NCBI RefSeq assembly: GCF_031326345.1
Contig: NZ_CP133671.1
Span: 5,704,001 to 5,768,000 of the forward strand
Source of the DNA: Aureispira sp. CCB-E
Lineage (GTDB): Bacteria > Bacteroidota > Bacteroidia > Chitinophagales > Saprospiraceae
DNA: 64,000 nt
Reading direction: 5' to 3'
Positions within the stretch are counted from its first letter, which is position 1. The number at the start of each line of letters is the position of its first letter. The notes under the pieces were generated by a model. That model was not told the DNA's origin. It saw nothing but the letters and a program-made list of their open reading frames with translations, and made no database searches. Made by a program: the position numbers and the translations under genes. Shown one piece after another: positions 41,889 through 58,874 of the stretch.

Positions 41889-41945
41889 TTTGGTGCTTTG
41901 ACAAATTTGTATATTTTTGCATTAAATCTTATTTAGACTAAATAA
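41889..41945 (+). promoter_or_regulatory. TonB-receptor promoter with iron-type palindromic operator
   Basis: TTTG (41889-41892) and TATTTTTG (41912-41919) fit the Bacteroidota promoter with 19 bp between. Nine bases downstream lies the perfect palindrome TTATTTAGACTAAATAA (41929-41945), which recurs unchanged ahead of the siderophore biosynthesis operon. Sites of this shape are bound by DtxR/Fur-type metal repressors, which is inference. Confidence 0.7.
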
Positions 41946-41957
41946 AAATAAATTTAA

Positions 41958-44315
41958 ATGAAACACTTCTCTGCTCGCTATATACTGTTACTCTTGTTGT
42001 TCTCCATTGCCCTTGTTAGCAATGCTCAGTATGTAAAAGGAAAAGTTGTAGATGGTTCTAATAATGTTCTTCCATTTGCTGATATTTCTATAAGTGGAGA
42101 AGGGTTTCTTTTAACAACACTATCCGATAGCATAGGCACTTACAATTTTGACAACCTTCCCAAGGGAGTCTGTACTCTATCCGTACATTATTTGGGGTAT
42201 GAACGCTTTGAAAGAACAATCTCAATCACCGAAAAGAAAACATACACCATCAATGTCACCTTAACCAGCTCTACCAATGTGTTGCAAGAACTAGAAGTTG
42301 TTGGCCAAAGCGATGAACAGATGCTAAAATCTTCTGCCTATGCGGTTGATGTCATTGCGACCAAAGCTTACAAAAACCTTACGGTTGATTTGAATCAGTT
42401 GCTCAACAAAACCGCAGGCATCCACATTCGTTCGGTAGGTGGGCTTGGTTCTGCTTTTAATTTGTCTCTCAACGGGCTTTCGGGCAATCGCATTCGATAT
42501 TTTGTAGATGGTATTCCTATGGAAAATTTGGGTACGTCTCTAAGTTTGAACAATTATCCTGTCAACTTAGTCAAAAGTATTGAAGTCTACAAAGGCGTTG
42601 TTCCTATCGAATTAAGCGCAGATGCACTAGGCGGTGCTATCAATATTGTCAGCGATTACAAAGGAAAAACATTCTTGGATGCTAGCTATTCATTTGGCTC
42701 TTTTAATACCCATCAAATTGCCTTAAATGCACAATACTCCCAACCCAATAAAGGCTATTTCATAACACTAAACGCCTTCTTTAACCATTCTGATAACAAC
42801 TACTGGATGGACGACCTTCCTGTTTATGATGAATTGGGCAATAAAGTAAACAACATCAGTATCCAACGATTTCACGATCAGTACACTTCTGGAATGGTCA
42901 GATTTAGAATAGGTTTATTAGATAAAGTGTTTGCAGACGAATTGTCACTCTCTGTAATGGGAGCCTTAAATAGAAATAATTACCAACATCCCAATAATAA
43001 TATCAAACTAACATTTGGGGACTACCATACTAAAAACCAAACGCTTTCTGCACAAGCTTTGTATAAAAAATCGTTTAAGAAGATAAAAATAAAAGCGTAT
43101 ACCCAATGGAGTAATGTTGTCGAATCGGTTGTCGATACTAGTCAAAAAAAATACAATTGGGCTGGTGTGTATTGGTGGAGAGATGCCAGTTCTTCTAGAG
43201 GAGAGTTGAACGAGCGTCGCTCACTCTTTGTTTTGAATGACAAACTAATCAACTCTAGCTTACAACTTTCTTACAAAATACATCCTCGCCATCAAGTCAA
43301 CTGGGCAGTGCATCAAAATTTCTTGTATCGAGAAGGCAAAGATAAAGTTGATGCATTAAGGCGATCATTTACCACTCCTAGTACTTTGCATAAAAATTTA
43401 ATGAGTTTAGGGTATAGCATCAACACCAAAAACAAGCGACTAGAGGCAACGGTCTTTGGCAAAGGCTATTGGTTCAATGCCCATATTATTACTCAAGATT
43501 ATACCAACAATGATGTTGAGAATACTGTCAACAACTTTTTGGGGGGCTATGGCATTGTAGGAACTTACCGACTCCCTAAAAAAATGCAATTCAAACTGTC
43601 GTATGAAAAAGCATATCGCCTTCCTGAAACTTATGAAATATTAGGTGATGGCATCTACATTCGCCCAAACCCAGCATTGCTTCCAGAAGCAAGTCACAAT
43701 ATAAATTTTGGATTTAATACGAGTCCTACCATACCACTATTTCAGTTTCATTATGAGTGCAACTTTTTTTATAGAAATGCTCAAAACTACATTCGCTTTG
43801 TCCCTCTAGGTCCTTTTGGTTCTTATGAAAACATCAACAATGTTGGTGTTATTGGAGTAGAAATGGGCGGTGCGGTTCATTATAAAAAAACCGTTAGCTT
43901 GTCTCTTAATGCTACCTATCAGCACCTTACGGACGAATCTCCTTTTGATGAAGGTTTGCCCAATGTTAACTACCAAAGTAGGGTTCCCAATATTCCATAT
44001 TTATTTTCCAATATTCGCTTGGGGTACCACTTCGACCTAAAAACAAAAGATCTACAATTTGCTATTTTTTGGAGTGGGCGCTATGTCCATCAATTCTACT
44101 TGACGTGGGAAAAACTTGGCAATGCTACGACAAAAAATGTTATTCCAAGTCAGTTCATTCAGGATTTGAACCTAGAATGCTCGTGGAAAAAAGGCAAGTA
44201 TAATTTAGCAGCTAGTCTTAACAACTTTACCAATACCAAAGCATACGATAATTTTAATATACAAAAACCAGGGATTGCATTTTATGTCAAACTAAGATGC
44301 TTTTTCCTGAAATAA
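41958..44315 (+). CDS. TonB-dependent siderophore receptor
   Basis: The 785-residue protein has a signal peptide ending LVSNAQ. A carboxypeptidase-regulatory-like domain (about 24-105; GKVVDGSNNVLPFADISISG) and a plug domain (about 120-235; SVGGLGSAFNLSLNGLSGNR, FVDGIPMENLG, LSADALGGAINIV) follow. A 22-stranded barrel runs to the terminal aromatic FYVKLRCFFLK. It imports ferric-siderophore through the outer membrane using TonB energy. The shared operator with the siderophore biosynthesis genes makes the home-made hydroxamate its likely substrate. The DUF4374 gene follows closely. Confidence 0.92.
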   Translation: MKHFSARYILLLLLFSIALVSNAQYVKGKVVDGSNNVLPFADISISGEGFLLTTLSDSIGTYNFDNLPKGVCTLSVHYLGYERFERTISITEKKTYTINVTLTSSTNVLQELEVVGQSDEQMLKSSAYAVDVIATKAYKNLTVDLNQLLNKTAGIHIRSVGGLGSAFNLSLNGLSGNRIRYFVDGIPMENLGTSLSLNNYPVNLVKSIEVYKGVVPIELSADALGGAINIVSDYKGKTFLDASYSFGSFNTHQIALNAQYSQPNKGYFITLNAFFNHSDNNYWMDDLPVYDELGNKVNNISIQRFHDQYTSGMVRFRIGLLDKVFADELSLSVMGALNRNNYQHPNNNIKLTFGDYHTKNQTLSAQALYKKSFKKIKIKAYTQWSNVVESVVDTSQKKYNWAGVYWWRDASSSRGELNERRSLFVLNDKLINSSLQLSYKIHPRHQVNWAVHQNFLYREGKDKVDALRRSFTTPSTLHKNLMSLGYSINTKNKRLEATVFGKGYWFNAHIITQDYTNNDVENTVNNFLGGYGIVGTYRLPKKMQFKLSYEKAYRLPETYEILGDGIYIRPNPALLPEASHNINFGFNTSPTIPLFQFHYECNFFYRNAQNYIRFVPLGPFGSYENINNVGVIGVEMGGAVHYKKTVSLSLNATYQHLTDESPFDEGLPNVNYQSRVPNIPYLFSNIRLGYHFDLKTKDLQFAIFWSGRYVHQFYLTWEKLGNATTKNVIPSQFIQDLNLECSWKKGKYNLAASLNNFTNTKAYDNFNIQKPGIAFYVKLRCFFLK

Positions 44316-44389
44316 ATAGGTTCATTTTTTACCATCATCCTTACTTCGTTCAAACATTTTATAACACGAAGTATCAAATTACTTATATC

Positions 44390-45625
44390 ATGTATAGCAT
44401 GTCTAATTTAAATAGTTTTTTCTGCTTATTGCTCAGCATTTCTTTAGGTTTTGTTGCTTGTGAGCAAAAAGTAGTGACACCTCAACCTGTTGAAGCAGGA
44501 ATTACATATGCCCTAAAAACGACAGGTACAGATGAAACAGAGTTTTTATTGAATAAAACAGACCTTATGCAGGGAGAACTCTCTGCTGTCAATAGTGGTG
44601 TAGAGCAAACGGGCTGGCGTTTTTATTATCCTGTCGGCAAAACCTTGTTTGCATCGGGATATAGTGATGACAATCAATGTGCTGCTTATGCCTTAGACGA
44701 AAATGGAAGTTTGATGAAAAAAGGAGAGTTTATTTTTGATAATGCCTTAGAAATGTTTGGTGCATCTTCGGATGAAGAGACCTTGTTGGCGATGGAGATT
44801 CCTAGAGCTGGTTTCCAAAACAGAAGGCTCTATTTTATTGATGTCAATACTGTTGGTGTCAAGAAAATCGTTGGAACAAAAATATTTGAATCCATTCCTG
44901 ATTCTTTGGTTGCTTGGCCTACTGCCTTAAAAGTTCGTGGCAATCATCTATTTGTGCCATTTCATAAATTGGACGTACAAGGCAACTTTAGCACACCACA
45001 ACCCAACGAAGCTCTAATTGCTGTTTATGATTACCCAAATGTAGGAACAAGCCCTACCAAAATTATTTCAGATTCTAGAACTTGTCACATTGGCGCGAAT
45101 GGTGCAACAGAGGGCTTGATAGAAGCCGATAATGGGGACCTTTATTCTTTCTCTTGTGGTGCTATTATGGCTGGGTTTTCTGTCGCTCCTACCAAACCTT
45201 CTGGTATTTTGAGAATCAAAGCAGGGGAAACTGATTTTGATCCTAATTACTTCTTTGATATAGAAGCGGCAACCAATGGAGGTAAATTGTTTTGGTTTGA
45301 TTATGTAGGTAATAATAAAGCTATTGCTAGAATATTGACGTCAGACAATCCAGCCGCTCCTTGGGCAGCTTATGGTCGTGATATTTTTAATCAGAAACTC
45401 GTCATTATTGACTTAGCAAATCAAACGATTACGGATGTTACCAATGTACCTTTGCATGCCAAACGATACACCTCTCCTATCTTGGTAGAAGAAGGAAAAG
45501 TTTATGTAAGCATTGAAACAGCCAATGATGCTTATGTCTATCAAGTTGACATCGCTTCTGCTGTAGGAACCAAAGGTGCCAAAATAGTAGGAAAAACAAT
45601 CAAAGGGTTTTACAAACTTTACTAA
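44390..45625 (+). CDS. DUF4374 lipoprotein of siderophore-uptake loci
   Basis: I choose ATG 44390 (MYSMSNLNSFFCLL), with ATG 44399 as the alternative; an upstream ATG at 44297 overlapping the receptor gene would hide the signal peptide. The 411-residue protein has a lipobox LGFVAC and a repeated beta-propeller-like body (YALKTTGTDETEFLL, GWRFYYPVGKTLFASGYSDD, NGATEGLIEADNGDLYSFSCG). DUF4374 lipoproteins occur next to TonB receptors and PepSY proteins in Bacteroidota and probably help capture iron complexes at the surface. The exact role is not established. Confidence 0.87.
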   Translation: MYSMSNLNSFFCLLLSISLGFVACEQKVVTPQPVEAGITYALKTTGTDETEFLLNKTDLMQGELSAVNSGVEQTGWRFYYPVGKTLFASGYSDDNQCAAYALDENGSLMKKGEFIFDNALEMFGASSDEETLLAMEIPRAGFQNRRLYFIDVNTVGVKKIVGTKIFESIPDSLVAWPTALKVRGNHLFVPFHKLDVQGNFSTPQPNEALIAVYDYPNVGTSPTKIISDSRTCHIGANGATEGLIEADNGDLYSFSCGAIMAGFSVAPTKPSGILRIKAGETDFDPNYFFDIEAATNGGKLFWFDYVGNNKAIARILTSDNPAAPWAAYGRDIFNQKLVIIDLANQTITDVTNVPLHAKRYTSPILVEEGKVYVSIETANDAYVYQVDIASAVGTKGAKIVGKTIKGFYKLY

Positions 45626-45645
45626 GGCAAAGTATTTCAAAATTT

Positions 45646-45702
45646 AAGTAATTGTTTAGGAAAAAGCATTTTAAAAATTGATTTTTTCTAAGCGATTATT
45701 TG
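45646..45702. repeat. Family B intergenic element (B3), diverged
   Basis: TAAGTAATTGTTTAGGAAAAA at the left (cut here to its first part) and TTTTTTCTAAGCGATTATTT at the right form imperfect inverted arms. It lies after the DUF4374 gene, consistent with a 3'-end role. Confidence 0.55.
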
Positions 45703-45730
45703 GCTTGATTTTGCACTTATGTTATTGCTT

Positions 45731-45799
45731 TAGTCCGCTCATGCTTAAAAACACAGCACACTTGTTAATTATAATAAGTCAAGCATTAAGAGCGGACTA
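45731..45799. repeat. Inverted repeat unrelated to family A
   Basis: TAGTCCGCTC (45731-45740) is the exact inverse of GAGCGGACTA (45790-45799), with ATGCTT / AAGCAT immediately inside. A further small hairpin follows near 45865-45895. The gap 45626-46017 contains no convincing gene. Confidence 0.55.
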
Positions 45800-45912
45800 T
45801 TGCAATGTATTGCAATTCAACATTGCCTATCAAATTTATTTTCTAATACTCAATATCAATAGCCTGATAATCATTCATAGGCTACTATTAACAATAACTT
45901 TCGCCTATCTAT

Positions 45913-46001
45913 TACTCTGTTTCAAAAATCGTATCAATCTAATTATTAGCAAGGTACATTCTTATAAATTTTCAAATACAATACTAATAAGCAACAGAGT
46001 A
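45913..46001. repeat. Family A element, third arm variant (A9)
   Basis: TACTCTGTT (45913-45921) and AACAGAGTA (45993-46001) are exact inverses. The interior AAAAATCGTATCAATCTAAT corresponds to the left arm of the copy at 49358. It ends 17 bp before the PepSY gene. Confidence 0.65.
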
Positions 46002-46017
46002 TCACCTATTAAGATTT

Positions 46018-47169
46018 ATGAAAAATAAGCCTCCTCTAAAACAACGCATAAAAAAAGTAGCTAGAAAAGTTCATCTCTTTTTAGGCTTAGTAACTGGTTT
46101 GATTGTTTTTATTCTTGCCCTAACTGGTGTTTGTCTCTCTTTTCAAGATGAGATAAGAGATTTTGGCGCAGATTACAAAACGGTTCCCAAAGAATCCAAA
46201 CCATTTTTGACCGCTTCTGAGGTCAAAGAAATAGCACAAACCATTTTTCCTGACAAAGCCATTCATGGTAGTGTTTTTGGGAAAGCCACCGATGCTATTG
46301 AAGTTATCTTTTATGAAGCAGAACCTGAGTTTTATTATAAGGTTTATCTAAATCCTTATAGTGGTGCTGTCTTACACAAAGAAGATTGCCTTTCTGGTTT
46401 TTTAGCTTTTGCTTTGCAAGGGCACAAAACGCTGTGGTTACCCAAGTCTATTGGTGCTGTCTTGGTCTCCTATGGTACCTTTCTATTCTTAATTGTGTTG
46501 GTATCGGGTCTTCTGCTTTGGTGGCCCAAAAACAAACGACATTTCAAACAAACCCTACAAGTCAAATGGACCAAGAGAACTTCTTTGAAAAAGAAAATTA
46601 TTCAAATACATACGATTCTTGGTGTTTATCTATCTTTATTTGCTTTGATTATTGGTATTACAGGCTCTATAATAGGTTTAAATTGGTTTTATTTCATTGT
46701 TTTTAAAGCCGTTGGAGGAAGTAAAGCTCCTCAATTTATTATTCCTAATAATATCTCTACGCCAAATGGTAATCCGTCCGATACCATTGCATTGGATCAA
46801 TTGATTCCCCGAATCAAAAAAGACATTCCCAATTATCAAAATTTAGAATTGCATTATCCAGAAACAGATTCTACCGCAATTTATGTAGAGGTGTCGTATA
46901 GCCAAGGCGTTTATTACGACTCTGATTATCGTTTTTACGATCAACATACATTACAAGAAATAAAACCAAATTCTATTTATGGTATTTATAAAGACAGCGA
47001 TTTTGCCGATAAAACCATCCGCATAGCTTATGATACGCACGTTGGAGCAATTTTAGGATTGTTTGGTAAAATTATTGTCTTTCTCGCTAGCTTTCTTATT
47101 TCTATTTTACCTGTAACTGGTTTGTTAATTTGGTGGAAAAGAAAAAAAGATATTGCCGAACGAGTATAG
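46018..47169 (+). CDS. PepSY-associated membrane protein (siderophore-iron reductase type)
   Basis: The 383-residue protein has four transmembrane helices (about 20-42, 150-172, 205-228, 350-372) and a periplasmic PepSY region (about 60-130, TASEVKEIAQTIFPDKAIHG). Conserved His lie at the membrane edges (KVHLFLGL, QGHKTLW, QIHTILG, DTHVGAI), as expected for heme ligation. Proteins of this type (FoxB/FpvG-like) reduce ferric siderophore in the periplasm to free the iron. Its place after the TonB receptor and DUF4374 genes supports that role. Confidence 0.88.
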   Translation: MKNKPPLKQRIKKVARKVHLFLGLVTGLIVFILALTGVCLSFQDEIRDFGADYKTVPKESKPFLTASEVKEIAQTIFPDKAIHGSVFGKATDAIEVIFYEAEPEFYYKVYLNPYSGAVLHKEDCLSGFLAFALQGHKTLWLPKSIGAVLVSYGTFLFLIVLVSGLLLWWPKNKRHFKQTLQVKWTKRTSLKKKIIQIHTILGVYLSLFALIIGITGSIIGLNWFYFIVFKAVGGSKAPQFIIPNNISTPNGNPSDTIALDQLIPRIKKDIPNYQNLELHYPETDSTAIYVEVSYSQGVYYDSDYRFYDQHTLQEIKPNSIYGIYKDSDFADKTIRIAYDTHVGAILGLFGKIIVFLASFLISILPVTGLLIWWKRKKDIAERV

Positions 47170-47330
47170 TACTCGTTTTTTTTGTTGATTTTCAGTTAAT
47201 TACACCACATAAATGTATATTAATGATTATCAATTTTTTGATAAAAATTTAAAAATAAAACTTGCGATAATGGAGATTGTGACGTTATATGTAATCCATA
47301 AAAGGATTTTTAACAAAAAAAGTCTTTAAT

Positions 47331-47537
47331 ATGAAAGCAAAATCAGCATTAATACTAAGAATAGCGCTATCTATTATACTAATTTGTGCTTCAATTATTT
47401 TTATTCATACTTCTTTGGATTCAAAGAATAGAAATAATTGTATGATCAAAGCAAAAAGCTGCGATAATGGAGTAAAAAGATACACTTATACCAGTAAGTA
47501 TATTGGGGAATGTGACTGTACAGTAATCTGTCAGTAG
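47331..47537 (+). CDS. Small cysteine-containing exported or anchored peptide
   Basis: The 68-residue peptide has an N-terminal hydrophobic helix (about 8-28, LILRIALSIILICASIIFI). A short mature part follows with four Cys (NNCMIKAKSC, GECDCTVIC has further ones) arranged as C-x6-C and C-x-C-x3-C, ending ICQ. I do not recognise it. It lies between the PepSY gene and the siderophore operon, with a strong terminator directly after it, which supports a real transcript. It could be a small exported peptide stabilised by disulfides or metal. Moderate confidence that it is expressed. Confidence 0.55.
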   Translation: MKAKSALILRIALSIILICASIIFIHTSLDSKNRNNCMIKAKSCDNGVKRYTYTSKYIGECDCTVICQ

Positions 47538-47553
47538 ATATATCTTTCCCCTC

Positions 47554-47592
47554 AAAGAGGCTGTCGGAAAAGTCCGAAGTCTCTTTTTTTTT
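47554..47592 (+). terminator. Rho-independent terminator
   Basis: AAAGAG and CTCTTT form the base and TCGGA/TCCGA the upper stem, followed by a run of T (47583-47592). It separates the uptake genes from the siderophore biosynthesis promoter. Confidence 0.8.
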
Positions 47593-47760
47593 GTGCAACT
47601 TTTAGCCGTATTAGAAAGTTTTGTGCGCCCCCCCCTCTCCTCCTTTGCAACATTCTTATGCCGTTGCAATCACAACTGTATATATTTTCATTGAAAGTAT
47701 ATTTCCTATAAATCTCATTATCAGATATTTATTTTTTCAACTCTAAAAAGGTGAAAAAAT

Positions 47761-47843
47761 TATTTAGAATAAGTCTAAATAAAATTGAATTATAAAATAT
47801 AATTACATAGCTTTGTGGCATTAAACTTATTTAGACTAAATAA
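47761..47843 (+). promoter_or_regulatory. Siderophore operon promoter flanked by two palindromic operators
   Basis: ATTG (47784-47787) and TAGCTTTG (47808-47815) form the promoter with 20 bp between. Upstream is TATTTAGA-N5-TCTAAATA (47761-47781); downstream is TTATTTAGACTAAATAA (47827-47843), identical to the site before the TonB receptor and at nearly the same distance from the -7 box. This arrangement fits tight repression by an iron-dependent regulator when iron is plentiful (inference). Confidence 0.72.
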
Positions 47844-47852
47844 AAATAAGCA

Positions 47853-49355
47853 ATGATTCTAAATTACCTTTCTAAAAACGAGACAGATTTTAGCAGTATT
47901 CTAGATGCGACATCGGTTCACACGCTAAAAAATAACATAGAAAAGACGATTGATTATTTAATTGGATTTTTTGAACGAGAAAAGTTTTATAGTGGTGCTT
48001 CTATTGAAGAATTAAAAAATAAAATGCAACAAATTGGAGAGGCGACGGGGCATCCTCTTAATTTATCAGCCGCATTGGATGAAATCAAAGACATTTACTT
48101 GGATCATACCATCTCTTTTCATAATCGAGATTATATGGCACATCTAAATTGTCCTGTCACGATTCCTGCTATCATTGGTGATTTCTTGGCTTCAACAATC
48201 AATACAGCAGTTGAAACATGGGACCAAAGTACATCTGGCACCTTAATCGAACAAGAACTCATTGAATGGATTGCAACAAGTTTCAAAATGCCTGCAACTG
48301 CCGACGGAGTTTTTACAAGTGGAGGAACACAATCAAATTTCATGGGCTTGTTGATGGCTCGAGACCACTATGCACATCAATATTTAGGTCTAAATATTAA
48401 GCAGCATGGCTTTTCTAAAGTGGTTCATAAATTTCGAATCTTCTGTTCTGAAAAAGCACATTATAGCATCAAAAAAAATGCTGCCTTATTGGGCTTAGGT
48501 TACGATGCTGTGGTTGAAGTACCAACAGATGCGGTATACAAAATGAATCCACAAGCCCTATCTCAAGCCATTGAGACAGAAAAAGCAAAAGGCAATATCC
48601 CTATCGCTGTAGTCGCTACGGCAGGAACAACTGATTTTGGTAGTATAGACCCTATCGCTGACATTTCTAAAATTGCTAAGGCTCATAACTTATGGTTGCA
48701 TGTAGATGGTGCTTATGGGGGGTGTTTTATTTTTACCCAAACGCACCAAAAAACATTGGAAGCAATCCAGCATGCCGACTCTCTCACCATTGATTTCCAT
48801 AAAACATTCTTTCAACCTGTTTGCTCTAGTGCTTTTATTACTGCTAACAAGGCTAATTTTAAGTATGTATCCTACTATGCCGATTATCTAAATCCAATAG
48901 AAACCAAAGATGCAGAAGCTCCCAACTTAGTTGTCAAGTCGCTTCAAACAACTAGACGTTTTGACGCACTCAAACTATGGTTCACACTACGGATGACAGG
49001 GATTGAAACCATTGCCTCTTTCTTGGAAATTGTACACCAACGCGCCTTAGATGCCTATAACTTATTGTTAGCAGCCGATTGCTTTGAGGTCATGCACAAA
49101 CCAGAGTTAAGTACGGTCGTGTTTCGATACAAACTAAAAGCAGGGATTGAAGACGACGCTGTTCTTGATAGTGTCAATTTAGCCATTAAAACTGCTTTAT
49201 TTAACACTGGACAGGCCTCTATTGCCAGTACCAAAATTAATGGCACGACCTATCTAAAATTCACGCTACTAAATCCCAAAACAACTCCTTCAGACCTCAA
49301 AAAGATTATTCAGTTAATCATTCAACAAGGAAATATCTTCTATTCTAACAACTAA
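47853..49355 (+). CDS. PLP-dependent diamine-forming decarboxylase of siderophore pathway
   Basis: The 500-residue group II decarboxylase has SGGTQSNFMGLLMARDHYA near residue 155, the PLP-phosphate and ring contacts ATAGTTDFGSIDP and HVDGAYGG (H283, D285), and the Schiff-base lysine K317 in LTIDFHKTFFQ. It belongs with siderophore decarboxylases related to DesA and diaminobutyrate decarboxylase. The product is probably cadaverine or putrescine; no diaminobutyrate aminotransferase gene is present nearby, which argues against 1,3-diaminopropane. It is the first gene of the biosynthetic operon, directly under the double operator. Confidence 0.9.
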   Translation: MILNYLSKNETDFSSILDATSVHTLKNNIEKTIDYLIGFFEREKFYSGASIEELKNKMQQIGEATGHPLNLSAALDEIKDIYLDHTISFHNRDYMAHLNCPVTIPAIIGDFLASTINTAVETWDQSTSGTLIEQELIEWIATSFKMPATADGVFTSGGTQSNFMGLLMARDHYAHQYLGLNIKQHGFSKVVHKFRIFCSEKAHYSIKKNAALLGLGYDAVVEVPTDAVYKMNPQALSQAIETEKAKGNIPIAVVATAGTTDFGSIDPIADISKIAKAHNLWLHVDGAYGGCFIFTQTHQKTLEAIQHADSLTIDFHKTFFQPVCSSAFITANKANFKYVSYYADYLNPIETKDAEAPNLVVKSLQTTRRFDALKLWFTLRMTGIETIASFLEIVHQRALDAYNLLLAADCFEVMHKPELSTVVFRYKLKAGIEDDAVLDSVNLAIKTALFNTGQASIASTKINGTTYLKFTLLNPKTTPSDLKKIIQLIIQQGNIFYSNN

Positions 49356-49357
49356 TA

Positions 49358-49499
49358 TTACTCCGTTAAAAAATCGTATCAGTTTGATTATCAGTAAGAT
49401 GCATTTTTATTATTTTTTATGATAAAAGGCTAATAATCAAACTGATGCAAGATGCTTTTTTATGTTTTTTATAAAAAAACTAAAAAATCAACGGAGTAC
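49358..49499. repeat. Family A element (A8) inside the siderophore operon
   Basis: TTACTCCGTTAAAAAATCG at the left pairs with TCAACGGAGTA at the right. ATCAGTTTGATTATCAGT and the later AATAATCAAACTGAT form inner arms. It separates the decarboxylase and hydroxylase genes. Confidence 0.8.
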
Positions 49500-49519
49500 T
49501 AAACTAATATACTATCGTA

Positions 49520-50854: not shown

Positions 50855-50865
50855 AAATACACCTT

Positions 50866-52053
50866 ATGGATTTAAGATTTTTTTTAATTTTAATGACTTT
50901 AGTTGCTGTTGTAAGTGACTATCTACTGCATCCTTTTTATCCTCAATTTTTTGAATTAAGATTTGGCATTACAGATCCTAAAATAGTTGGTTATTATTTT
51001 GGGGCGATTTGCTTTATGGTCATGATTGCCTTCCCTTTCTGGGCATACCTAGCCAAGAAAATAGCAGAACTAAAAATTTTAGTTATTACTCAAGCCATTG
51101 CAGGGGTTTTAGCCTTGTATTGTTTCAGTACTAGTTCTTATTTTAATTTTTGGTTGGCTTCTTTAATAATGGTTTTATTCAAGGGAAGTTATCTACTGGT
51201 TTATCCGTTTATTCTTAAAATAATCAAAAAAGAAGAACAGGTACACACCATTGGTTTGCTCTCTGTTATTGTTCATCTAGGTGGCATTGGAGGAGCTGTG
51301 ATTGGCGGTTTAGCAGTTGATTTTTTAGATCCTCGGTACATATTTTTAATCATGGCTTTGGGGGATTTTGTTCAAATGGCTATGAGTTGGTACCTTTTAA
51401 AAAGCAACCGTTTTTTGACCAATCAAGTCCTAACTTCAGCAGCAATAGCAGTAGAAAAGCGTAGTAATAATGGCTTTATTCTAAAGGTAGGTTTACTCAC
51501 TTTAGTCCTGTATTTTAGTGATTTCTTAATTCGACCTTTTTTCTCTACCTATTGGGAAAGTATTTCTATATACGACAGCAAACTAGTTTCTGGAACGATG
51601 TACGCTATTCCTGGTTTTGTGGCACTGATTGGTCTTTTTTTCAATCAAAGACACGCACCTAATAACCTGTATAGAGGTATTTTATCCGCCTTATTATTAG
51701 GAATAGTTGGGCTGTGGCTACAAGCCTCTCAAATAGATGTTGTCTTAATTTTGGGTAGAATCATTTATGGCTGGGCAATATTTCAAGGCATGGTTCGGTT
51801 CGATGTCCTTTTGTTTGAACAAAGCCATCCAGATGCTTATGCCCTAGACTATAGCAAGATTCATTTTTTCCAAAACTTAGGCGTTTTATTAGCCTCCTTG
51901 TCAGTCGGAATTATTGTTGACTTAGAAGGATTAAGAATGCCTTTCTTGATTGCTGTAGGTTGTTTTATGGCGATTCTTTTAATGTATTATATACTCTTTT
52001 ATGTACAAATAAACGTCAAGTCTGCACTCAATAACAAGGTGTCTAAAACATAA
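50866..52053 (+). CDS. MFS transporter, probable siderophore exporter
   Basis: The 395-residue protein has 11-12 transmembrane segments and typical MFS features, with GAICFMVMIAFPFWAYLAKK in the TM2-TM3 region (loop motif A is degenerate) and HLGGIGGAVIGGLAVDFLDP in TM4-5. It sits between the hydroxylase and synthetase genes, so export of the finished siderophore across the inner membrane is the natural assignment. Uptake of a siderophore or precursor is the alternative. Confidence 0.85.
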   Translation: MDLRFFLILMTLVAVVSDYLLHPFYPQFFELRFGITDPKIVGYYFGAICFMVMIAFPFWAYLAKKIAELKILVITQAIAGVLALYCFSTSSYFNFWLASLIMVLFKGSYLLVYPFILKIIKKEEQVHTIGLLSVIVHLGGIGGAVIGGLAVDFLDPRYIFLIMALGDFVQMAMSWYLLKSNRFLTNQVLTSAAIAVEKRSNNGFILKVGLLTLVLYFSDFLIRPFFSTYWESISIYDSKLVSGTMYAIPGFVALIGLFFNQRHAPNNLYRGILSALLLGIVGLWLQASQIDVVLILGRIIYGWAIFQGMVRFDVLLFEQSHPDAYALDYSKIHFFQNLGVLLASLSVGIIVDLEGLRMPFLIAVGCFMAILLMYYILFYVQINVKSALNNKVSKT

Positions 52054-52079
52054 CACACCATTTCAAAGTAAACCGACTA

Positions 52080-52155
52080 TCAATAATAGTAGCAGCGAAC
52101 CGAGCGCAACGAGCTCACGACCGCAGGGAGTAACAAAGCCAACTATTGTCAATAA
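52080..52155. repeat. Family A interior fragment inside the siderophore operon
   Basis: AATAGTAGCAGCGAACCGAG, GAGCTCACGACCGCAGGGAG and AACTATTG match inner family A modules. Intact terminal arms are lacking. Confidence 0.5.
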
Positions 52156-52175
52156 GATTATAACGATTTAATATT

Positions 52176-54623
52176 ATGATAAAAGATAAAAAAGAAACTG
52201 TACTCTATCAAATCAGTTACGAGCATTTTGGCACCATTGAGTTAGCCCCATTTGATATAACAACAGATGTTCCACTAATTCACCAATGGGTCAATCAAGA
52301 ATATGCTTTTTTTTGGGGATTGCAAGATACAACCCTAGAGCAAGTAAAACTAGAGTACCAAAAGCTAATTCACCCAAAACATTACGATGTTTTTATGGGC
52401 TACTACAATGGAGTGCCAGCCTTTTTATTGGAACGATATGATCCTGAAAAAGACCTCATTTCCAACTACTATAGTCAGCGAATTGGTGACTGTGGCATCC
52501 ATGTATTAGTGGCCCCCGCAGAACAACCGATTCCCAACTTTACATGGCATATTTTTGATGCCATCAGTCGCTTTATTTTTAGCAATCCAACTGTTGAACG
52601 CATTTTAGTAGAACCAGATATTCAAAACAAGAAGATGTTTGCCATTTGTGAGCGCATTGGCTTTGTTTTAGATCGAATTGTCAGTCTACCGCACAAAACA
52701 GCACAACTTGCTTTTTATGAAAAAAAAGATTTTATCATCAATCAAAAGACCCATCGCATGATCAAACGAAGTGCTATGAATACGACCAATAATAATATTG
52801 TTTCACCACAACAAGCCATTGCACATATTCAACCACAAATATGGCAACAGGTCAATCGTCTATTAATCAAAAAAGCAATCTGTGAGTTTTCACACGAACG
52901 CCTAATTGAACCTGTAATTCAAGAAAGTTCAGAAGGTTGGAATACGTATACCTTAACAACAGATGATACTAGCATTGTCTATACTTTTAAGGCCAAGGAA
53001 ATGGCCTTGAATCACTTGTACATAGCTTTAGATTCTATCACCAAAACCAAGACAGGAACCCCTGTTTCATTAGATGCCCTTTTGTTTATCAAAGAGTTTA
53101 AAAATGCTTTAGGGATACAACAAAAGAATTTAGCCATTTATTTGGAGGAAATCACCAGCACTCTCTATAGCAGTGCCTATAAACACATCAAACAAAATCC
53201 TTGTGCCAAAGAATTGGTCTATGCTGATTTTCAAACAATCGAACAAGCCATGATGGAGGGACACCCTGGTTTTGTGGCCAACAATGGTCGTATTGGTTTT
53301 GATAGCGGTGATTATAGAGCTTATGCCCCTGAATCGGGCAATTCATTTTCTCTACTGTGGTTAGCAGGGCACAAAGATCGAACATTCTATGCGGGGACAA
53401 AGGATTTGCCTTATGAAACCCTAATTCAACAAGAATTGGATGCTGAAACACGTGCGATGTTTTCGAAAATGATAACAGACGATGGTTTTGCCCCTGAGGA
53501 TTATTATTTCATTCCTATCCATCCTTGGCAATGGTTCAATAAATTATCCAATATATTTGCGCCCGAAATAGCTCAAGGCAAACTTATTTGTTTGGGTTAT
53601 GGCAACGATCAGTATTTTGCGCAGCAGTCCATACGCACCTTATACAACAGTACACATCCTCATAAGTTTTACACCAAAACAGCCTTATCCATTCTCAATA
53701 TGGGCTTTATGAGAGGGCTTCCAATGTATTATTTAGGAACAGCTCCTCAAATGGCAGTTTGGTTGGAAAATTTACTACATCAAGACAAATATATACAAGA
53801 AACTGGCTTTGAAATGCTCGGAGAAATTGCATCGGTTAGTTATATCAATCCTTATTATGAAGAATTGGGTCCTCACAATGATTATAACAAAATGCTGGCC
53901 TCTTTGTGGCGAGAAAGCCCAACTTCCAAACTTCAAGAAGGGCAACAAGTCATGACGATGGCAGCACTGCTGCACGTAGATCAAAATGGCGATGCTTTGC
54001 TGCCTGAACTTATCAAAGCTTCTGGCTTAACAACCGACCACTGGCTTCGAAAGTATCTCAAAGCCTACCTAAGTCCTCTCCTACATTGTTTCTATCAATA
54101 TGACTTGGTCTTTATGCCACATGGTGAAAATTTAATTCTTGTGTTTGACAACCATATGCCTATCAAGGTCTTTTTGAAAGATATTACAGAAGAAGCCGTT
54201 ATTTTAAATCCTAATATAGAGCTTCCCAAAGGATTAGAGCGGATGTATGCCCCTGTTGATGAAGATGTAAAACTACTCTCTATTTTCATTGACATCTTTG
54301 ACGGCTTCTTCCGTTTTTTGGCACAGATTCTAGTAGAGCATGCCAACTATGACGAGCAACGATTTTGGGAATTGGTAGCCGAAAACATATTAGACTACCA
54401 AGCTAGATACCCCGAACTACAATCTAAGTTCGAGCAATACGATTTATTTGCACCTGATTTTCAATTATCTTGTTTAAATCGCCTCCAACTAAATAATGGC
54501 AAGCAAATGATTGATTTAGATGATCCGACGGCTCTGTTACAATTTGTTGGGCGCTTAAAAAATCCTATTGCAAATTACAACACAACAACAACTTCTTCTA
54601 TCATCAACCAGGCTGCTTTATGA
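52176..54623 (+). CDS. Acyltransferase-NIS siderophore synthetase fusion
   Basis: The 815-residue protein joins a GNAT acyltransferase (about 15-190: FGTIELAPF, IHQWVNQEYAFFWGL, GDCGIHVLVAP, ERILVEPDIQNKKMF) to an IucA/IucC synthetase (about 205-800). The latter has EQAMMEGHPGFVANNGRIGF, FIPIHPWQWFNKL, FYTKTALSILNMGFMRGLP and VFMPHGENLILVFDN. The first half acylates (for example succinylates) the N-hydroxy-diamine; the second uses ATP to join the carboxylate to an amine. The same fusion is known for BibC of bisucaberin pathways. The stop overlaps the next start as ATGA. Confidence 0.92.
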   Translation: MIKDKKETVLYQISYEHFGTIELAPFDITTDVPLIHQWVNQEYAFFWGLQDTTLEQVKLEYQKLIHPKHYDVFMGYYNGVPAFLLERYDPEKDLISNYYSQRIGDCGIHVLVAPAEQPIPNFTWHIFDAISRFIFSNPTVERILVEPDIQNKKMFAICERIGFVLDRIVSLPHKTAQLAFYEKKDFIINQKTHRMIKRSAMNTTNNNIVSPQQAIAHIQPQIWQQVNRLLIKKAICEFSHERLIEPVIQESSEGWNTYTLTTDDTSIVYTFKAKEMALNHLYIALDSITKTKTGTPVSLDALLFIKEFKNALGIQQKNLAIYLEEITSTLYSSAYKHIKQNPCAKELVYADFQTIEQAMMEGHPGFVANNGRIGFDSGDYRAYAPESGNSFSLLWLAGHKDRTFYAGTKDLPYETLIQQELDAETRAMFSKMITDDGFAPEDYYFIPIHPWQWFNKLSNIFAPEIAQGKLICLGYGNDQYFAQQSIRTLYNSTHPHKFYTKTALSILNMGFMRGLPMYYLGTAPQMAVWLENLLHQDKYIQETGFEMLGEIASVSYINPYYEELGPHNDYNKMLASLWRESPTSKLQEGQQVMTMAALLHVDQNGDALLPELIKASGLTTDHWLRKYLKAYLSPLLHCFYQYDLVFMPHGENLILVFDNHMPIKVFLKDITEEAVILNPNIELPKGLERMYAPVDEDVKLLSIFIDIFDGFFRFLAQILVEHANYDEQRFWELVAENILDYQARYPELQSKFEQYDLFAPDFQLSCLNRLQLNNGKQMIDLDDPTALLQFVGRLKNPIANYNTTTTSSIINQAAL

Positions 54624-55183
54624 ACCAAACACCGTTAAAAGAAACACATCCTATTTCCTTTCGACCATTTAGTGTCAAAAAAGACGCTGCTTGTTTATTG
54701 AAATGGGTCAACAATCCACATGCTCAATATTGGGGTATGTTAGATGCTACGGCAGAGGAGCTGATTACAACTTACACGCATTTGCTCAGTATCCCTGACT
54801 ATAAGGTATATATTGGGGAGATACAGAATGAAGCTGCTTTCTTGATGGAATCTTACAACCCCAAAACGGATCCTATCGGGCAACATTACCCCGTTTTAGA
54901 AGGAGATTGCGGCATGCATGTATTGGTCAAACCTCCTCAACATCGAATTTCTGGTTTCACTTGGCATGTCTTTTCTAGCATTATGGATTTTTTATTTGAG
55001 CAAAACCATTGCAAACGCATTGTTGTCGAACCAGATGTCAATAATCACAAAATTCATCGCCTTAACAAACGAGCGGGTTTTGTCTACGACAAACAGGTCA
55101 ACCTACCTGACAAAAAAGCTTTCTTAGCTTTCTGTACTTACGAGGCTTATCAGCAAAGTCGAGCTGAATGTAGTGTCTATTAA
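54620..55183 (+). CDS. GNAT acyltransferase, second copy
   Basis: The 187-residue protein resembles the N-terminal half of the preceding fusion: ISFRPFSVKKDAACLLKWVN, AQYWGMLDATAEEL, GDCGMHVLVKPPQH and RIVVEPDVNNHKIHRLNKRAGF. It is an AlcB/IucB-type hydroxamate-forming acyltransferase, complete on its own. It overlaps the fusion gene by 4 bp. A second acyltransferase suggests either two acyl donors or a second acylation position in the product. Confidence 0.9.
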   Translation: MNQTPLKETHPISFRPFSVKKDAACLLKWVNNPHAQYWGMLDATAEELITTYTHLLSIPDYKVYIGEIQNEAAFLMESYNPKTDPIGQHYPVLEGDCGMHVLVKPPQHRISGFTWHVFSSIMDFLFEQNHCKRIVVEPDVNNHKIHRLNKRAGFVYDKQVNLPDKKAFLAFCTYEAYQQSRAECSVY

Positions 55184-55222
55184 GCAGTTTCTTAAACCAT
55201 CAAAGATTTAAATATATTATCA

Positions 55223-57067
55223 ATGACTTCATCTTACCATCATTCGATTATTCAACATCTAAATCCTGACAGTTGGGCTATTGTCAATCGAAAACAACTA
55301 AAAAAAGCAATGGCTGAATTAGCGCACGAAGGACTAATAAAGCCAACGTTAAGAAAGGATAGTAATACTTCATATATTGTCTACGCTGATGATCCTAATA
55401 TTTATTATCAATTTGATGCTAAAATATTAGCGTTAGAACACTGGCACATCGACGAAGCCTCTCTTACCAAGATCAATTATGGTCAAAAAGAGACGCTAGA
55501 CTTACTTGCTTTTGTTTTAGAATTTGAAATTCAATTGGGAATTACGGCAAGCGTCTGCCCTACCTACTTAGAAGAATTGACCAGCACACTTTCTAGTCAA
55601 GCATATAAATACTGTCATCAAAAAAATAACTCAAAAGCATTGGTTCAGGCCGATTTTCAGACCATAGAGCAAGCAATGGTAGAAGGGCATCCTTGTTTTA
55701 TAGCCAATAGTGGTCGCATAGGCTTTGATGGAAATGATTACGAAGCGTTTGCTCCAGAGGCAGCCAATCCTTTTACTTTAGTTTGGTTGGCAGGACATAA
55801 GACTCGCACTTGTTTTAGTGCTATTCAAGCCTTGAGTTACCAGCAACTTTTGGAACAAGAATTAGGACTTTCGATGATACAGGATTTTAATAAAAAAATA
55901 ATCGAGTTGGGACAAAATCCTGATGATTTCATTTTCATTCCTGTACATCCTTGGCAATGGTTCAATAAGTTAGCGTTGGTTTTTGCCCCCGATTTAGCCC
56001 AAAAACGACTCTTATATTTAGGAACGTCTAAAGACAGCTATGTCGCTCAGCAATCTATTCGCACACTATATAATAAGGATAAGCCCAATCATTTTTATAC
56101 CAAAACGGCTTTGTCTATTATTAATATGGGATTTATGAGAGGCTTGTCTCCTAATTATATGAAAAGCACCCCTGTCATTACAGACTGGATTAACCAATTA
56201 TTAGAGCCTGATGCTTATTTGCAAGAATGTGGTTTTCTTATGTTGGGTGAAGTTGCTACCATCGGATATACCAATCATTATTATGAAAAACTAGGCAGCT
56301 CTTGCGCCCATAATAAGATGCTTTCTGCTTTATGGAGAGAAAGCCCTCTATCCAAAATAACAGCATCGCAACGAGTCATGACAATGGCGGCGTTGTTACA
56401 TATAGATCATCAAGGAACAGCCTTTCTGCCAGAACTCATAAAAGCATCTGGTCATTCTATAGAAATATGGATAAAAGCCTATTTAAAAGCTTATTTTTCT
56501 ACGCTATTGCATTGTTTTTTTAAGTATGAATTGGTCTTTATGCCTCATGGTGAAAATGTCATTCTCATTTTAGAAGACAATTTACCAACAGGTATTTTCA
56601 TGAAAGATATTACAGAAGAAATTCTTCTTTACAACAAAGAATTGACACTTCCTAAAGCCGCTCAACGAGTGTTTGTCGAAACAACTGATGAAATGAAAAT
56701 ATTGTCGTTGTTTACCGATGTTTTTGATTGTTACTTTAGATTTATGAGCGCTATTCTTAATGAACAAACTCATTTTTCAGAAGATTCATTTTGGCAACTT
56801 GTAGCAGAATGTGTACACGACTACCAAAAACGCTTTCCAAGCTATGCAGAAAAATATCAACGCTACAATCTTTTTGTTCCTCAATTCAAAAAATGCTGCT
56901 TGAATCGCTTGCAAATCCGCAACAATCAACAGATGCTTGATTTGGAAGATCCCATGAATAGTTTGCAATTTGCGGGTATGCTTAACAATCCAATCGCTTG
57001 CTATGCCAATCAAGCATTGGGCTACTCTACCAATAATTATCCATCAAAAGAGCTAAATACGCTGTAA
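55223..57067 (+). CDS. NIS siderophore synthetase (IucA/IucC), second copy
   Basis: The 614-residue protein matches the C-terminal half of the fusion throughout: EQAMVEGHPCFIANSGRIGF, FIPVHPWQWFNKL, FYTKTALSIINMGFMRGL, FMPHGENVILILEDN and KDITEEILLYN. All motifs for ATP and substrate binding appear intact. Two synthetases in one operon imply either sequential couplings with different partners or a non-symmetric or trimeric product. Together with the separate GNAT this is a split counterpart of the fused gene, probably from duplication of a GNAT-NIS unit. Confidence 0.92.
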   Translation: MTSSYHHSIIQHLNPDSWAIVNRKQLKKAMAELAHEGLIKPTLRKDSNTSYIVYADDPNIYYQFDAKILALEHWHIDEASLTKINYGQKETLDLLAFVLEFEIQLGITASVCPTYLEELTSTLSSQAYKYCHQKNNSKALVQADFQTIEQAMVEGHPCFIANSGRIGFDGNDYEAFAPEAANPFTLVWLAGHKTRTCFSAIQALSYQQLLEQELGLSMIQDFNKKIIELGQNPDDFIFIPVHPWQWFNKLALVFAPDLAQKRLLYLGTSKDSYVAQQSIRTLYNKDKPNHFYTKTALSIINMGFMRGLSPNYMKSTPVITDWINQLLEPDAYLQECGFLMLGEVATIGYTNHYYEKLGSSCAHNKMLSALWRESPLSKITASQRVMTMAALLHIDHQGTAFLPELIKASGHSIEIWIKAYLKAYFSTLLHCFFKYELVFMPHGENVILILEDNLPTGIFMKDITEEILLYNKELTLPKAAQRVFVETTDEMKILSLFTDVFDCYFRFMSAILNEQTHFSEDSFWQLVAECVHDYQKRFPSYAEKYQRYNLFVPQFKKCCLNRLQIRNNQQMLDLEDPMNSLQFAGMLNNPIACYANQALGYSTNNYPSKELNTL

Positions 57068-57084
57068 AGTAATTATCTAACAAA

Positions 57085-57675
57085 ATGATGAATGAAAAAA
57101 ATAAAGCTGCATTTTTAAGCGAAATCATTCGCACCCGAAAAAGTGTTTATGCCGATGATTTTTTAGCTAAAGAAATCCCTGATTCGATACTAACAGAATT
57201 AATCATCAATGCGACTTGGGCACCTAATTATAAATGTACGGAACCTTGGCGTTTTGTGGTCTTGAGAGGCAAGCATCGAAAAGCATTGGGCACTTTTTTA
57301 CTAGACTATTATCAAAGAGAATGGAACGAGAAAGATTTCCCTCCTTCCCGATACGAACAGACACGCCACTATCCACAACATGCTACGATGGTCGCTATTA
57401 TTATGCAACGTTCTTTAAAAGTAAACATTAAAGAATGGGAGGAACTCGCTGCTGTTGCTTGTGCCGTTCAAAACTTGTGGTTGTCCTGTACTGCTTATGA
57501 CATAGGGGGCTATTGGGATAGCTCTGAAGCTGCTATTTTATATGGTGCTCAATTAGGTCTTAAAAAAAATGAACGGTGTTTGGGGCTTTTTTATATGGGA
57601 TACTATTCTCCCAAACAAGCACCTCCCAAAAGAAGAAGAAAATTATTACGAAAAAAATTAAGTTGGTCAGAATAA
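57085..57675 (+). CDS. Nitroreductase-family flavoprotein in siderophore operon
   Basis: The 196-residue protein has the nitroreductase N-terminus IIRTRKSVYADDFLAKEIP, the FMN-contact segment ATWAPNYKCTEPWRFVVLRG (cut across its middle) and the C-terminal GLFYMGYY. The fold binds FMN and reduces small molecules with NAD(P)H. It is 18 bp after the synthetase gene, so it belongs to the operon. A role in modifying the siderophore or in reductive iron release is possible, but neither is shown by the sequence. Confidence 0.87.
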   Translation: MMNEKNKAAFLSEIIRTRKSVYADDFLAKEIPDSILTELIINATWAPNYKCTEPWRFVVLRGKHRKALGTFLLDYYQREWNEKDFPPSRYEQTRHYPQHATMVAIIMQRSLKVNIKEWEELAAVACAVQNLWLSCTAYDIGGYWDSSEAAILYGAQLGLKKNERCLGLFYMGYYSPKQAPPKRRRKLLRKKLSWSE

Positions 57676-57746
57676 ACAATTGCTAAAGATTAGCTTCCCT
57701 CGTGAGCAACTCTTGGCGTTAACTAGATTATCGCTTATTAGCATCA

Positions 57747-58874
57747 ATGAACCAAAATAAAATACAAATGAATCCAAATATTAATAATAGAAATAGAGTA
57801 CTTGCCATCGACTTGGCAAGAGGAATCAGTGTCCTATTTGTTGTTGTTGTTCATACATTATGGATGTATGGAAATCCTTATACTCAAAGTAGCACTTGGC
57901 TTGGAACGAGTATTCATTTCATCGGAAAAGGTACTCCAATGTTCTTAATCGCCATGGGCTTCTCTTTTTGTCTATCTAAAAGACAGAGTACCCGTGCTAT
58001 CATTCGTAGAGCCTTAGGGCTATTGGGATTTGGTTATGGAATGAATCTCTTTAAGTTTGTTGTTCCCTATTTCTTAGGTATTCTACCTACTGAATTTATA
58101 GCAGCCTATGGTTGGACAGCTCCACTAGAGTTTGGGCAATTAACTTATCTATTATTAACGGGCGACATCTTGCAATTAGCAGGAATTTCGCTATTACTTT
58201 TGGTTGGGGTTCAAAAATTGGGCAATAACAAGTTTATTCCATTGGCAATAGGACTACTTCTACTAATCATTACCCCATTCGTACGAGGTATTCGTTTGGA
58301 TATAATAGGTGTTGACTATTGCTTGGATCTACTTTGGGGAGGAGAATGGAATGTTTACTTTGCAGTATTTCCTTGGTTCTTTTTTATTTTAGCGGGCATG
58401 TTTTTTGGCAGGTGGTTCAAGGAAAAAAACAACCATCAAACGTTTATTTTTAGGCAAATGCTACTATATGGTCTGCTGTTTCTTCTTATTGGAGGAGGGT
58501 TAGTTTATAGCAATTTTAGCTACCACTTTAACGATTATTTTCATTTAGGACCAGGTGGTGCTATCTACTTATTAGGTTTTAATCTTGTTTTGCTGTTCAT
58601 TGTTAACAAAATTGCAGGCTATTTTGCCCCTAATGTATTTTTTAATTTTTTGATCTATTCTAGCCAACGAGTTACGTTATTATACGTATTTCAATGGGTT
58701 ATTATTTGTTTTGGAATGGGAATCTTGGGGTACCAACAACATGGTGTTGGCGTTGTTCTTGTCCTTATTCCTATCATCACCATTTTCACTTATTTTATTC
58801 ATTTTTATTATGAAAAAATGCATAAAGTTTCTTTTAGAAAGAAGAAAAAAACACTTGGAATATCTGTTCGTTAA
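57747..58874 (+). CDS. DUF1624/heparan-glucosaminide N-acetyltransferase-like membrane protein
   Basis: The 375-residue protein has about ten transmembrane helices and begins RVLAIDLARGISVLFVVVVH, where the early Arg and conserved His (H in VVVVHTLWM) are typical of membrane acyltransferases of the YeiB/DUF1624 group. The basic C-terminal tail (RKKKK) lies in the cytoplasm. Members move acyl groups across the membrane or onto sugars. Its place at the end of the siderophore operon suggests a late acylation or transport-coupled step, which is inference. An alternative start is ATG 57768 (MNPNINN). Confidence 0.75.
   Translation: MNQNKIQMNPNINNRNRVLAIDLARGISVLFVVVVHTLWMYGNPYTQSSTWLGTSIHFIGKGTPMFLIAMGFSFCLSKRQSTRAIIRRALGLLGFGYGMNLFKFVVPYFLGILPTEFIAAYGWTAPLEFGQLTYLLLTGDILQLAGISLLLLVGVQKLGNNKFIPLAIGLLLLIITPFVRGIRLDIIGVDYCLDLLWGGEWNVYFAVFPWFFFILAGMFFGRWFKEKNNHQTFIFRQMLLYGLLFLLIGGGLVYSNFSYHFNDYFHLGPGGAIYLLGFNLVLLFIVNKIAGYFAPNVFFNFLIYSSQRVTLLYVFQWVIICFGMGILGYQQHGVGVVLVLIPIITIFTYFIHFYYEKMHKVSFRKKKKTLGISVR

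What the first reader, a model, noticed from the sequence alone, without database searches (positions are those of the whole stretch)
41889..58874. Hydroxamate NIS siderophore island with two synthetases and two acyltransferases
A decarboxylase, N-hydroxylase, exporter, GNAT-NIS fusion, GNAT, NIS synthetase, nitroreductase and membrane acyltransferase follow the TonB/DUF4374/PepSY uptake genes. Known cadaverine or putrescine pathways (bisucaberin, putrebactin) need one synthetase; citrate-hydroxamate pathways need two but use other diamine genes not seen here. The product may be a non-symmetric or extended hydroxamate not described before.
Basis: partly seen in the sequence, partly recalled or inferred. 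Interest (0 to 1): 0.75.

Follow-up and report, generated by a model that had tools for sequence, protein, structure and literature searches.

The report
Bisucaberin-B-type iron-scavenger gene island
A marine bacterium of the genus Aureispira carries the same gene set that Tenacibaculum uses to make linear hydroxamate iron scavengers, so the layout is already known, but the role of its duplicated enzyme pair is still unexplained and a shared DNA switch sits before its synthesis and uptake genes.

Summary
The genes are real and correctly placed, but the novelty claim mostly fails. Decarboxylase, N-hydroxylase, exporter, GNAT-NIS fusion, GNAT and NIS match, in the same order, the published bsb cluster of Tenacibaculum mesophilum (bisucaberin B). 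Both synthetases are type C: D1 falls in a D1 clade (29 of 29 rows, support 100), D2 in a clade with Tenacibaculum D2 (25 of 29, support 99). Uptake resembles XusABC, closest to the ferrichrome-binding XusB. Expected product (inferred): linear cadaverine-succinate hydroxamates, plain or acyl-tailed as in Tenacibaculum.

Three points I did not find in the papers searched: (i) D1, whose counterpart was inactive in E. coli, is more conserved than D2 in 780 of 780 locus pairs, and C1 and D1 carry their own invariant residues, so the extra pair is probably functional with another substrate; (ii) a palindrome, TTATTTAGNCTAAATAA, lies at the decarboxylase gene's 5' end in 30 of 39 two-set loci (background 19 of 2207), and its only two exact copies in the 7.39-Mb genome are before the island's receptor and decarboxylase genes; (iii) an HGSNAT-like acyltransferase is in 37 of 40 two-set loci, against 2 of 35 other type C loci.

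The parts
41929..41945 (.). Palindrome TTATTTAGACTAAATAA, 12 bp before the receptor ATG; proposed iron-responsive operator
   Evidence: one of two exact copies in the whole own genome
41958..44315 (+). TonB-dependent receptor (XusA-like)
   Evidence: Plug and CarboxypepD_reg domains; NCBIfam myxochelin receptor model below cut-off, 468 of 925 bits
44297..45625 (+). DUF4374 protein (XusB-like)
   Evidence: PF14298, 86.6 bits; B. fragilis XusB 9hqe, 170 bits
46018..47169 (+). PepSY_TM membrane protein (XusC-like, proposed ferric-siderophore reductase)
   Evidence: PF03929, 189 bits; role from PMC13142918 passages
47827..47843 (.). Second copy of the palindrome, 9 bp before the decarboxylase ATG
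   Evidence: conserved position in other loci
47853..49355 (+). A: PLP decarboxylase (lysine to cadaverine, inferred)
   Evidence: Pyridoxal_deC; desferrioxamine-pathway decarboxylase 5o5c, 448 bits
49520..50854 (+). B: diamine N-hydroxylase
   Evidence: Lys_Orn_oxgnase 430 bits; 5o8p 584 bits, putrescine N-hydroxylase 7us3 466 bits
50866..52053 (+). E: MFS exporter
   Evidence: MFS_1; counterpart of bsbE
52176..54623 (+). CD1: fused GNAT (C1) and type C NIS synthetase (D1)
   Evidence: DfoC 5o7o over residues 30-801, 808 bits; C1 clade and D1 clade
54620..55183 (+). C2: GNAT, proposed succinyltransferase making HSC
   Evidence: DfoC N-domain 148 bits; keeps the I-H-N residues of single-set enzymes
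55223..57067 (+). D2: type C NIS synthetase, BsbD2 counterpart
   Evidence: DfoC 678 bits; D2 clade with Tenacibaculum
57085..57675 (+). Nitroreductase-family protein, role unknown
   Evidence: PF00881; in 14 of 40 two-set and 4 of 6 citrate-like loci
57747..58874 (+). HGSNAT-like membrane acyltransferase, proposed end-group acylation
   Evidence: PF07786 72.6 bits; in 37 of 40 two-set loci

Best explanation
A bsb/tbs-type N-hydroxy-N-succinylcadaverine (HSC) siderophore island with a Xus-like uptake operon. Inferred route: lysine is decarboxylated by A; cadaverine is N-hydroxylated by B; C2 adds succinate to give HSC; D2 joins HSC units into a linear hydroxamate without closing the ring, as shown in E. 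coli for T. mesophilum BsbD2; the MFS protein exports it. The ferric complex returns through the TonB receptor with the DUF4374 protein, and the PepSY protein reduces the iron. The second pair, C1-D1, is an old, strongly conserved duplicate; its likely role (inferred, about 0.4) is to make and attach a different end unit, such as an N-hydroxy-N-acylcadaverine cap. Receptor and biosynthesis units are probably co-regulated through a shared palindromic operator.
For: Same core gene order as bsb. Nearest solved relatives of the core enzymes are desferrioxamine-pathway proteins. D1 clade 29 of 29, support 100; D2 clade 25 of 29, support 99, with Tenacibaculum D2; all 29 D2 together not rejected, p-AU 0.756. 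Linear, acyl-tailed products in Tenacibaculum. D1 more conserved than D2 in 780 of 780 pairs. C1-specific M-F-C in 40 of 40 and seven D1-specific residues in 41 of 41. DUF4374 protein nearest ferrichrome-binding XusB. Operator.
Against: No chemistry from Aureispira. The window's D2 is only 52-55% identical to most other D2, so the linear outcome is an extrapolation. T. maritimum, with the same kind of cluster, gave no detectable bisucaberin B. In the simpler-model tree the D2 rows form a grade, not a clade. G003 lost C1 and the HGSNAT gene genome-wide but keeps D1 with its special residues, which does not fit a D1 that needs the product of C1. The special residues were picked from the data and could be a founder effect.
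Confidence: 0.88

Rival explanations
1. Citrate-hydroxamate pathway (aerobactin, schizokinen or rhizobactin type): two synthetases of different types add two hydroxamate arms to citrate.
For: Two NIS genes and a decarboxylase with some match to the DABA decarboxylase RhbB model, 414 bits against a cut-off of 900.
Against: Both synthetases score far better against DesD (597-623 bits) than IucC (219-239) or IucA (31-39). They are 52% identical to each other. The citrate-like clusters L023-L028 branch outside both. No aminotransferase family was found among the eleven island genes.
Confidence: 0.03
2. C1-D1 is a redundant or decaying copy of C2-D2 with no separate role.
For: The BsbD1 part made no siderophore in E. 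coli; G003 has lost C1.
Against: D1 is more conserved than D2 in 780 of 780 pairs and has 271 columns at 95% or more against 198. C1 keeps the GxH histidine and EPD aspartate in 40 of 40. The one likely broken synthetase seen is a D2, in L108.
Confidence: 0.1
3. C1-D1 is a second HSC machine that makes larger or cyclic oligomers (desferrioxamine-E- or bisucaberin-like), with C1 also a succinyltransferase.
For: D1's nearest solved relative is DfoC, with the same GNAT-NIS fusion; characterised enzymes of this type mostly cyclise.
Against: The BsbD1 part given HSC produced nothing, though it was tested without its C1 domain. C1 departs from the I-H-N residues found in 39 of 40 single-set and Chitinophaga C domains. 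The three T. maritimum product families end in N-acetyl, hydroxamic acid or succinic acid, i.e. open chains.
Confidence: 0.2

Closest known systems
bsb cluster of Tenacibaculum mesophilum (bisucaberin B; PMC6164419, parts 1-3 of 4 read)
   Same: A, B, MFS, CD1 fusion, C2, D2 in the same order; C1/C2 44% and D1/D2 50% identical there, 41% and 52% here
   Different: Nitroreductase, HGSNAT-like gene and the uptake trio are not among the six ORFs of the bsb cluster as described there; product here unknown
tbs cluster of Tenacibaculum maritimum (PMC5561996, passages; siderome PMC12224167, section 16)
   Same: MFS gene and duplicated/fused CD gene
   Different: Its products are acyl-tailed with three kinds of end group and no bisucaberin B was detected; gene order not seen in the passages
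Single-set desferrioxamine/bisucaberin clusters (DfoJAC type; e.g. Pantoea, Erwinia)
   Same: A, B and a GNAT-NIS fusion; nearest solved structures
   Different: One set only; 2 of 35 single-set or other type C loci have the HGSNAT-like gene
XusABC uptake of Bacteroides (PMC13142918, passages)
   Same: TonB receptor, DUF4374 protein and PepSY protein side by side; nearest to ferrichrome-binding B. fragilis XusB
   Different: Here next to the organism's own siderophore genes, not described as piracy of foreign siderophores

Membership tests
bsb/tbs-type two-set HSC siderophore cluster | Genes A, B, MFS, CD1 fusion, C2, D2 in this order | tested here: met
bsb/tbs-type two-set HSC siderophore cluster | D1 and D2 each orthologous to the D1 and D2 of Tenacibaculum | tested here: met
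   with Tenacibaculum congeners; T. mesophilum itself not available; D2 a grade in the simpler tree
bsb/tbs-type two-set HSC siderophore cluster | Product bisucaberin B or another linear HSC hydroxamate | not testable with these tools
   Needs mass spectrometry
Type C NIS synthetase | Sequence groups with DesD/DfoC rather than IucA or IucC | tested here: met
Citrate-hydroxamate pathway (aerobactin, schizokinen, rhizobactin) | Two NIS synthetases of different types, one acting on citrate | tested here: not met
   Both are type C
Citrate-hydroxamate pathway (rhizobactin) | Diaminobutyrate aminotransferase beside the decarboxylase | tested here: not met
   No aminotransferase family among the island genes; rest of the genome not searched
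Xus uptake system | TonB receptor + DUF4374 protein + PepSY membrane protein adjacent | tested here: met
Xus uptake system | DUF4374 protein binds a ferric siderophore | not testable with these tools
   Needs a binding assay

The most novel reading that the evidence does not exclude
C1-D1 is a neofunctionalised capping pair: the C1 domain loads a non-succinyl (fatty or short) acyl group onto N-hydroxycadaverine and D1 condenses that cap with HSC chains, a dedicated asymmetry module of the NIS pathway kept across marine Bacteroidota, followed by end modification by the HGSNAT-like enzyme, the whole switched together with uptake by a DtxR-like operator.
Probability: 0.4. Interest if true: 0.6.

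Novelty: new member of a known kind. Interest (0 to 1): 0.38.

Why it matters
It also makes an open puzzle testable. The 2018 bsb paper could not say what the duplicated C1/D1 set is for. Here that set is better conserved than the set known to work, has its own invariant residues, and occurs in a genus (Tenacibaculum) whose siderophores carry acyl tails. The palindrome gives a handle for finding further genes of the same regulon in marine Bacteroidota.

Tried and rejected
Citrate-type pathway: rejected, both synthetases are type C and the citrate-like clusters L023-L028 branch outside. Recent duplication inside Aureispira: rejected, D1 and D2 each group with their counterparts in other genera. 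Putrescine instead of cadaverine: not excluded; the hydroxylase scores 584 and 503 bits against desferrioxamine-type enzymes and 466 against putrescine N-hydroxylase, which does not prove the substrate. Island as foreign DNA by base composition: G+C 0.32-0.39 over the island, no clear break. Promoter and terminator scans: 64 against 65.6 expected and 15 against 12.1 expected, no information. The short core TTTAGNCTAAA at one mismatch is not enriched in the window (10 against 7.8 expected), and the 17-mer at two mismatches is not enriched in the genome (17 sites against 16 for the reversed pattern); only the two exact copies and their conserved position carry weight. AlphaFold model of the C1D1 fusion: mean pLDDT 71.5, with the stretch of most D1-specific residues partly under 50, so not used. 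A paper search for DesD substrate recognition gave listings only and nothing was read from it.

Limits of the counts. Near-duplicates L032, L055, L062 and L067 were dropped from group counts. 'Two-set' means that a D1-clade synthetase is present: 40 loci (36 named, 4 unnamed), of which L005 lacks C1 and L108 has D2 in two frames; the window is extra. The tree left out 16 loci, near-duplicates or close congeners chosen by hand; that used 44 loci chosen by hand. The C1- and D1-specific columns were picked by looking at the data.
Full report
What is there. The window is part of a 7.39-Mb genome in two contigs. Aureispira sp. CCB-QB1 (Saprospirales) carries the same island at 99-100% protein identity (L032), so the host is most likely an Aureispira.

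Where it belongs. The nearest solved relatives of the core enzymes are desferrioxamine-pathway proteins: decarboxylase 5o5c (448 bits), N-hydroxylase 5o8p (584 bits), DfoC 5o7o for the fusion (808 bits), DfoC N-domain for the free GNAT (148 bits), DfoC for the second NIS (678 bits). Both synthetases are type C: DesD 597-623 bits, IucC 219-239, IucA 31-39. They are 52% identical to each other; the two acyltransferases 41%.

Known precedent. PMC6164419 (parts 1-3 of 4 read) describes the bsb cluster of Tenacibaculum mesophilum: bsbA, B, E (MFS), CD1 fusion, C2, D2, with C1/C2 44% and D1/D2 50% identical. BsbD2 made linear bisucaberin B in E. coli. The BsbD1 part, tested without its C1 domain in a host supplying HSC, gave no product; the authors leave open poor expression or inactivity. 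PMC5561996 (passages) reports a similar tbs cluster in T. maritimum. PMC10734526 (passages) counts 167 bisucaberin-B-like clusters among the Flavobacteriaceae genomes it examined. The premise that cadaverine pathways need one synthetase does not hold for this group.

Comparative evidence. In 395 genomes sampled from the phylum, 10 had a match at E <= 1e-30: 4 with the two-set layout and 6 with one distant NIS, 36-39% identical. The six carry A, a second protein with weak NIS and/or GNAT similarity, B and the NIS; in the one scanned with Pfam (L023) that protein is an NIS-GNAT fusion. I read them as citrate-like, which was not tested further. Of 40 relatives searched for any NIS gene, 2 have one, the own genome and G003, so the island is patchy. 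The named scan gave 80 loci. After dropping near-duplicates, 40 loci carry a D1-clade synthetase, in Tenacibaculum, Aquimarina, Flavobacterium, Cellulophaga, Kordia, Microscilla and others. A mixture-model tree of 74 rows puts 29 of 29 D1 in one clade (support 100) and 25 of 29 D2, including the window's and Tenacibaculum's, in another (support 99); holding all 29 D2 together is not rejected, p-AU 0.756. A simpler-model tree of 120 rows has the same D1 clade (41 rows, 100) but shows D2 as a grade. The duplication is therefore older than these genera, or spread with the cluster.

The second pair looks functional. Across 40 loci (window included, L108 left out) D1 is more identical than D2 in 780 of 780 pairs, mean 70.9 against 60.5%. 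D1 has 271 columns conserved at 95% or more, D2 198. C1 shows M-F-C in 40 of 40, where C2 (41 of 41) and the single-set and Chitinophaga C domains (39 of 40) show I-H-N. C1 forms one clade, support 100. C1 keeps the GxH histidine and the EPD aspartate in 40 of 40; that these are catalytic is recalled from work on MbtK/Rv1347c, not tested. Seven residues (D1 numbering P319, L323, A326, M329, A330, S356, S358) are the same in 41 of 41 D1 and differ from 40 of 40 D2; five lie directly after the conserved NMGFMRGL motif. The columns were chosen from the data, and a founder effect with strong conservation could look the same, so this suggests a changed substrate and does not prove it.

What the second pair may do (inference). 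Tenacibactins K-M have a fatty acyl end on N-hydroxycadaverine (PMC8767563, abstract and part 1 of Results). T. maritimum gave 20 complexes with HAC and HSC units in three end-group families, and no bisucaberin B (PMC12224167, section 16). In Streptomyces, accessory enzymes that supply N-hydroxy-N-acetylcadaverine shift the balance between desferrioxamines B and E (PMC12161575, passages). A second acyltransferase-synthetase pair that makes and attaches a cap fits these facts. Against it, G003 has lost C1 and keeps D1 with its seven residues.

Accessory genes. The HGSNAT_cat-type acyltransferase is in 37 of 40 two-set loci, 2 of 35 other type C loci, 0 of 5 Chitinophaga and 1 of 6 citrate-like loci; in 40 aligned sequences R17, D22, H36 and H266 are invariant. 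I propose acylation of a free amine of the siderophore, since N-acetylated ends occur in T. maritimum; this is untested. G003 has no match to this gene. The nitroreductase is in 14 of 40 two-set, 4 of 6 citrate-like and 2 of 5 Chitinophaga loci, so it follows Bacteroidota NIS clusters in general.

Uptake. The DUF4374 protein matches XusB 9hqe (170 bits) far better than the other DUF4374 chains (35-46 bits). PMC13142918 (passages) says that 9hqe is B. fragilis XusB, which binds the hydroxamate ferrichrome, and describes XusC as a PepSY iron-siderophore reductase. The trio here is probably the return path for the island's own hydroxamate.

Operator. TTATTTAGACTAAATAA stands 12 bp before the receptor ATG and 9 bp before the decarboxylase ATG. 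In the own genome these are the only exact copies of TTATTTAGNCTAAATAA; at up to 2 mismatches there are 17 sites against 16 for the reversed pattern, so only the exact pair is telling. In two-set loci a site with at most 2 mismatches lies at the 5' end of the decarboxylase gene in 30 of 39 and of the receptor gene in 7 of 13, against 19 of 2207 background windows; single-set loci have it at the decarboxylase in 0 of 31. Seven Flavobacterium-type loci without the MFS gene show no site there. G003 has an exact site before its decarboxylase gene. Sites lie before the nitroreductase in 4 of 4 citrate-like loci that have it, and a one-mismatch site in the own genome precedes another TonB receptor. 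The genome has one DtxR-family match and two FUR-family matches. The likeness to DtxR-type operators is recalled, not tested. A full-text search for the motif listed five papers, by title none on bacterial iron regulation; they were not opened.

What is new. For points (i) to (iii) of the summary, 'not found' rests on the paper searches and the papers read; the library lacks most subscription journals.

Verdict. New member of a known kind. Two points are worth following: the function of C1-D1 and the operator.

Noticed in passing
window 41929-41945 and 47827-47843: Two exact copies of a 17-bp palindrome before the receptor and decarboxylase genes; the same element sits at that place in 30 of 39 related two-set loci.
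   Followed up: yes
L005 (G003, same genus): Rearranged island without C1 and without the HGSNAT-like gene, uptake genes at the other end; a natural deletion of C1.
   Followed up: partly
L058, L080, L091 (Chitinophaga): Clusters with two type C synthetases side by side that lie outside the D1 and D2 groups, i.e. apparently a separate duplication.
   Followed up: no
L034, L035, L037, L038, L041, L042, L044, L050, L077, L084: C2 and D2 are fused as well, giving two GNAT-NIS fusion proteins.
   Followed up: no
L106 (uncultured Shewanella): A single-set gammaproteobacterial cluster that carries the HGSNAT-like gene (48% identical), unusual outside Bacteroidota in this set.
   Followed up: no
L108 (Flavobacterium davisii): D2 appears as two separate open frames while CD1 is intact.
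   Followed up: no
window 47331-47537: Small ORF (68 aa by eye) with a hydrophobic start and several cysteines between the PepSY gene and the decarboxylase gene.
   Followed up: no
own genome G000:C1:1440857-1440873 (L132): One-mismatch copy of the palindrome directly before another TonB receptor gene.
   Followed up: partly
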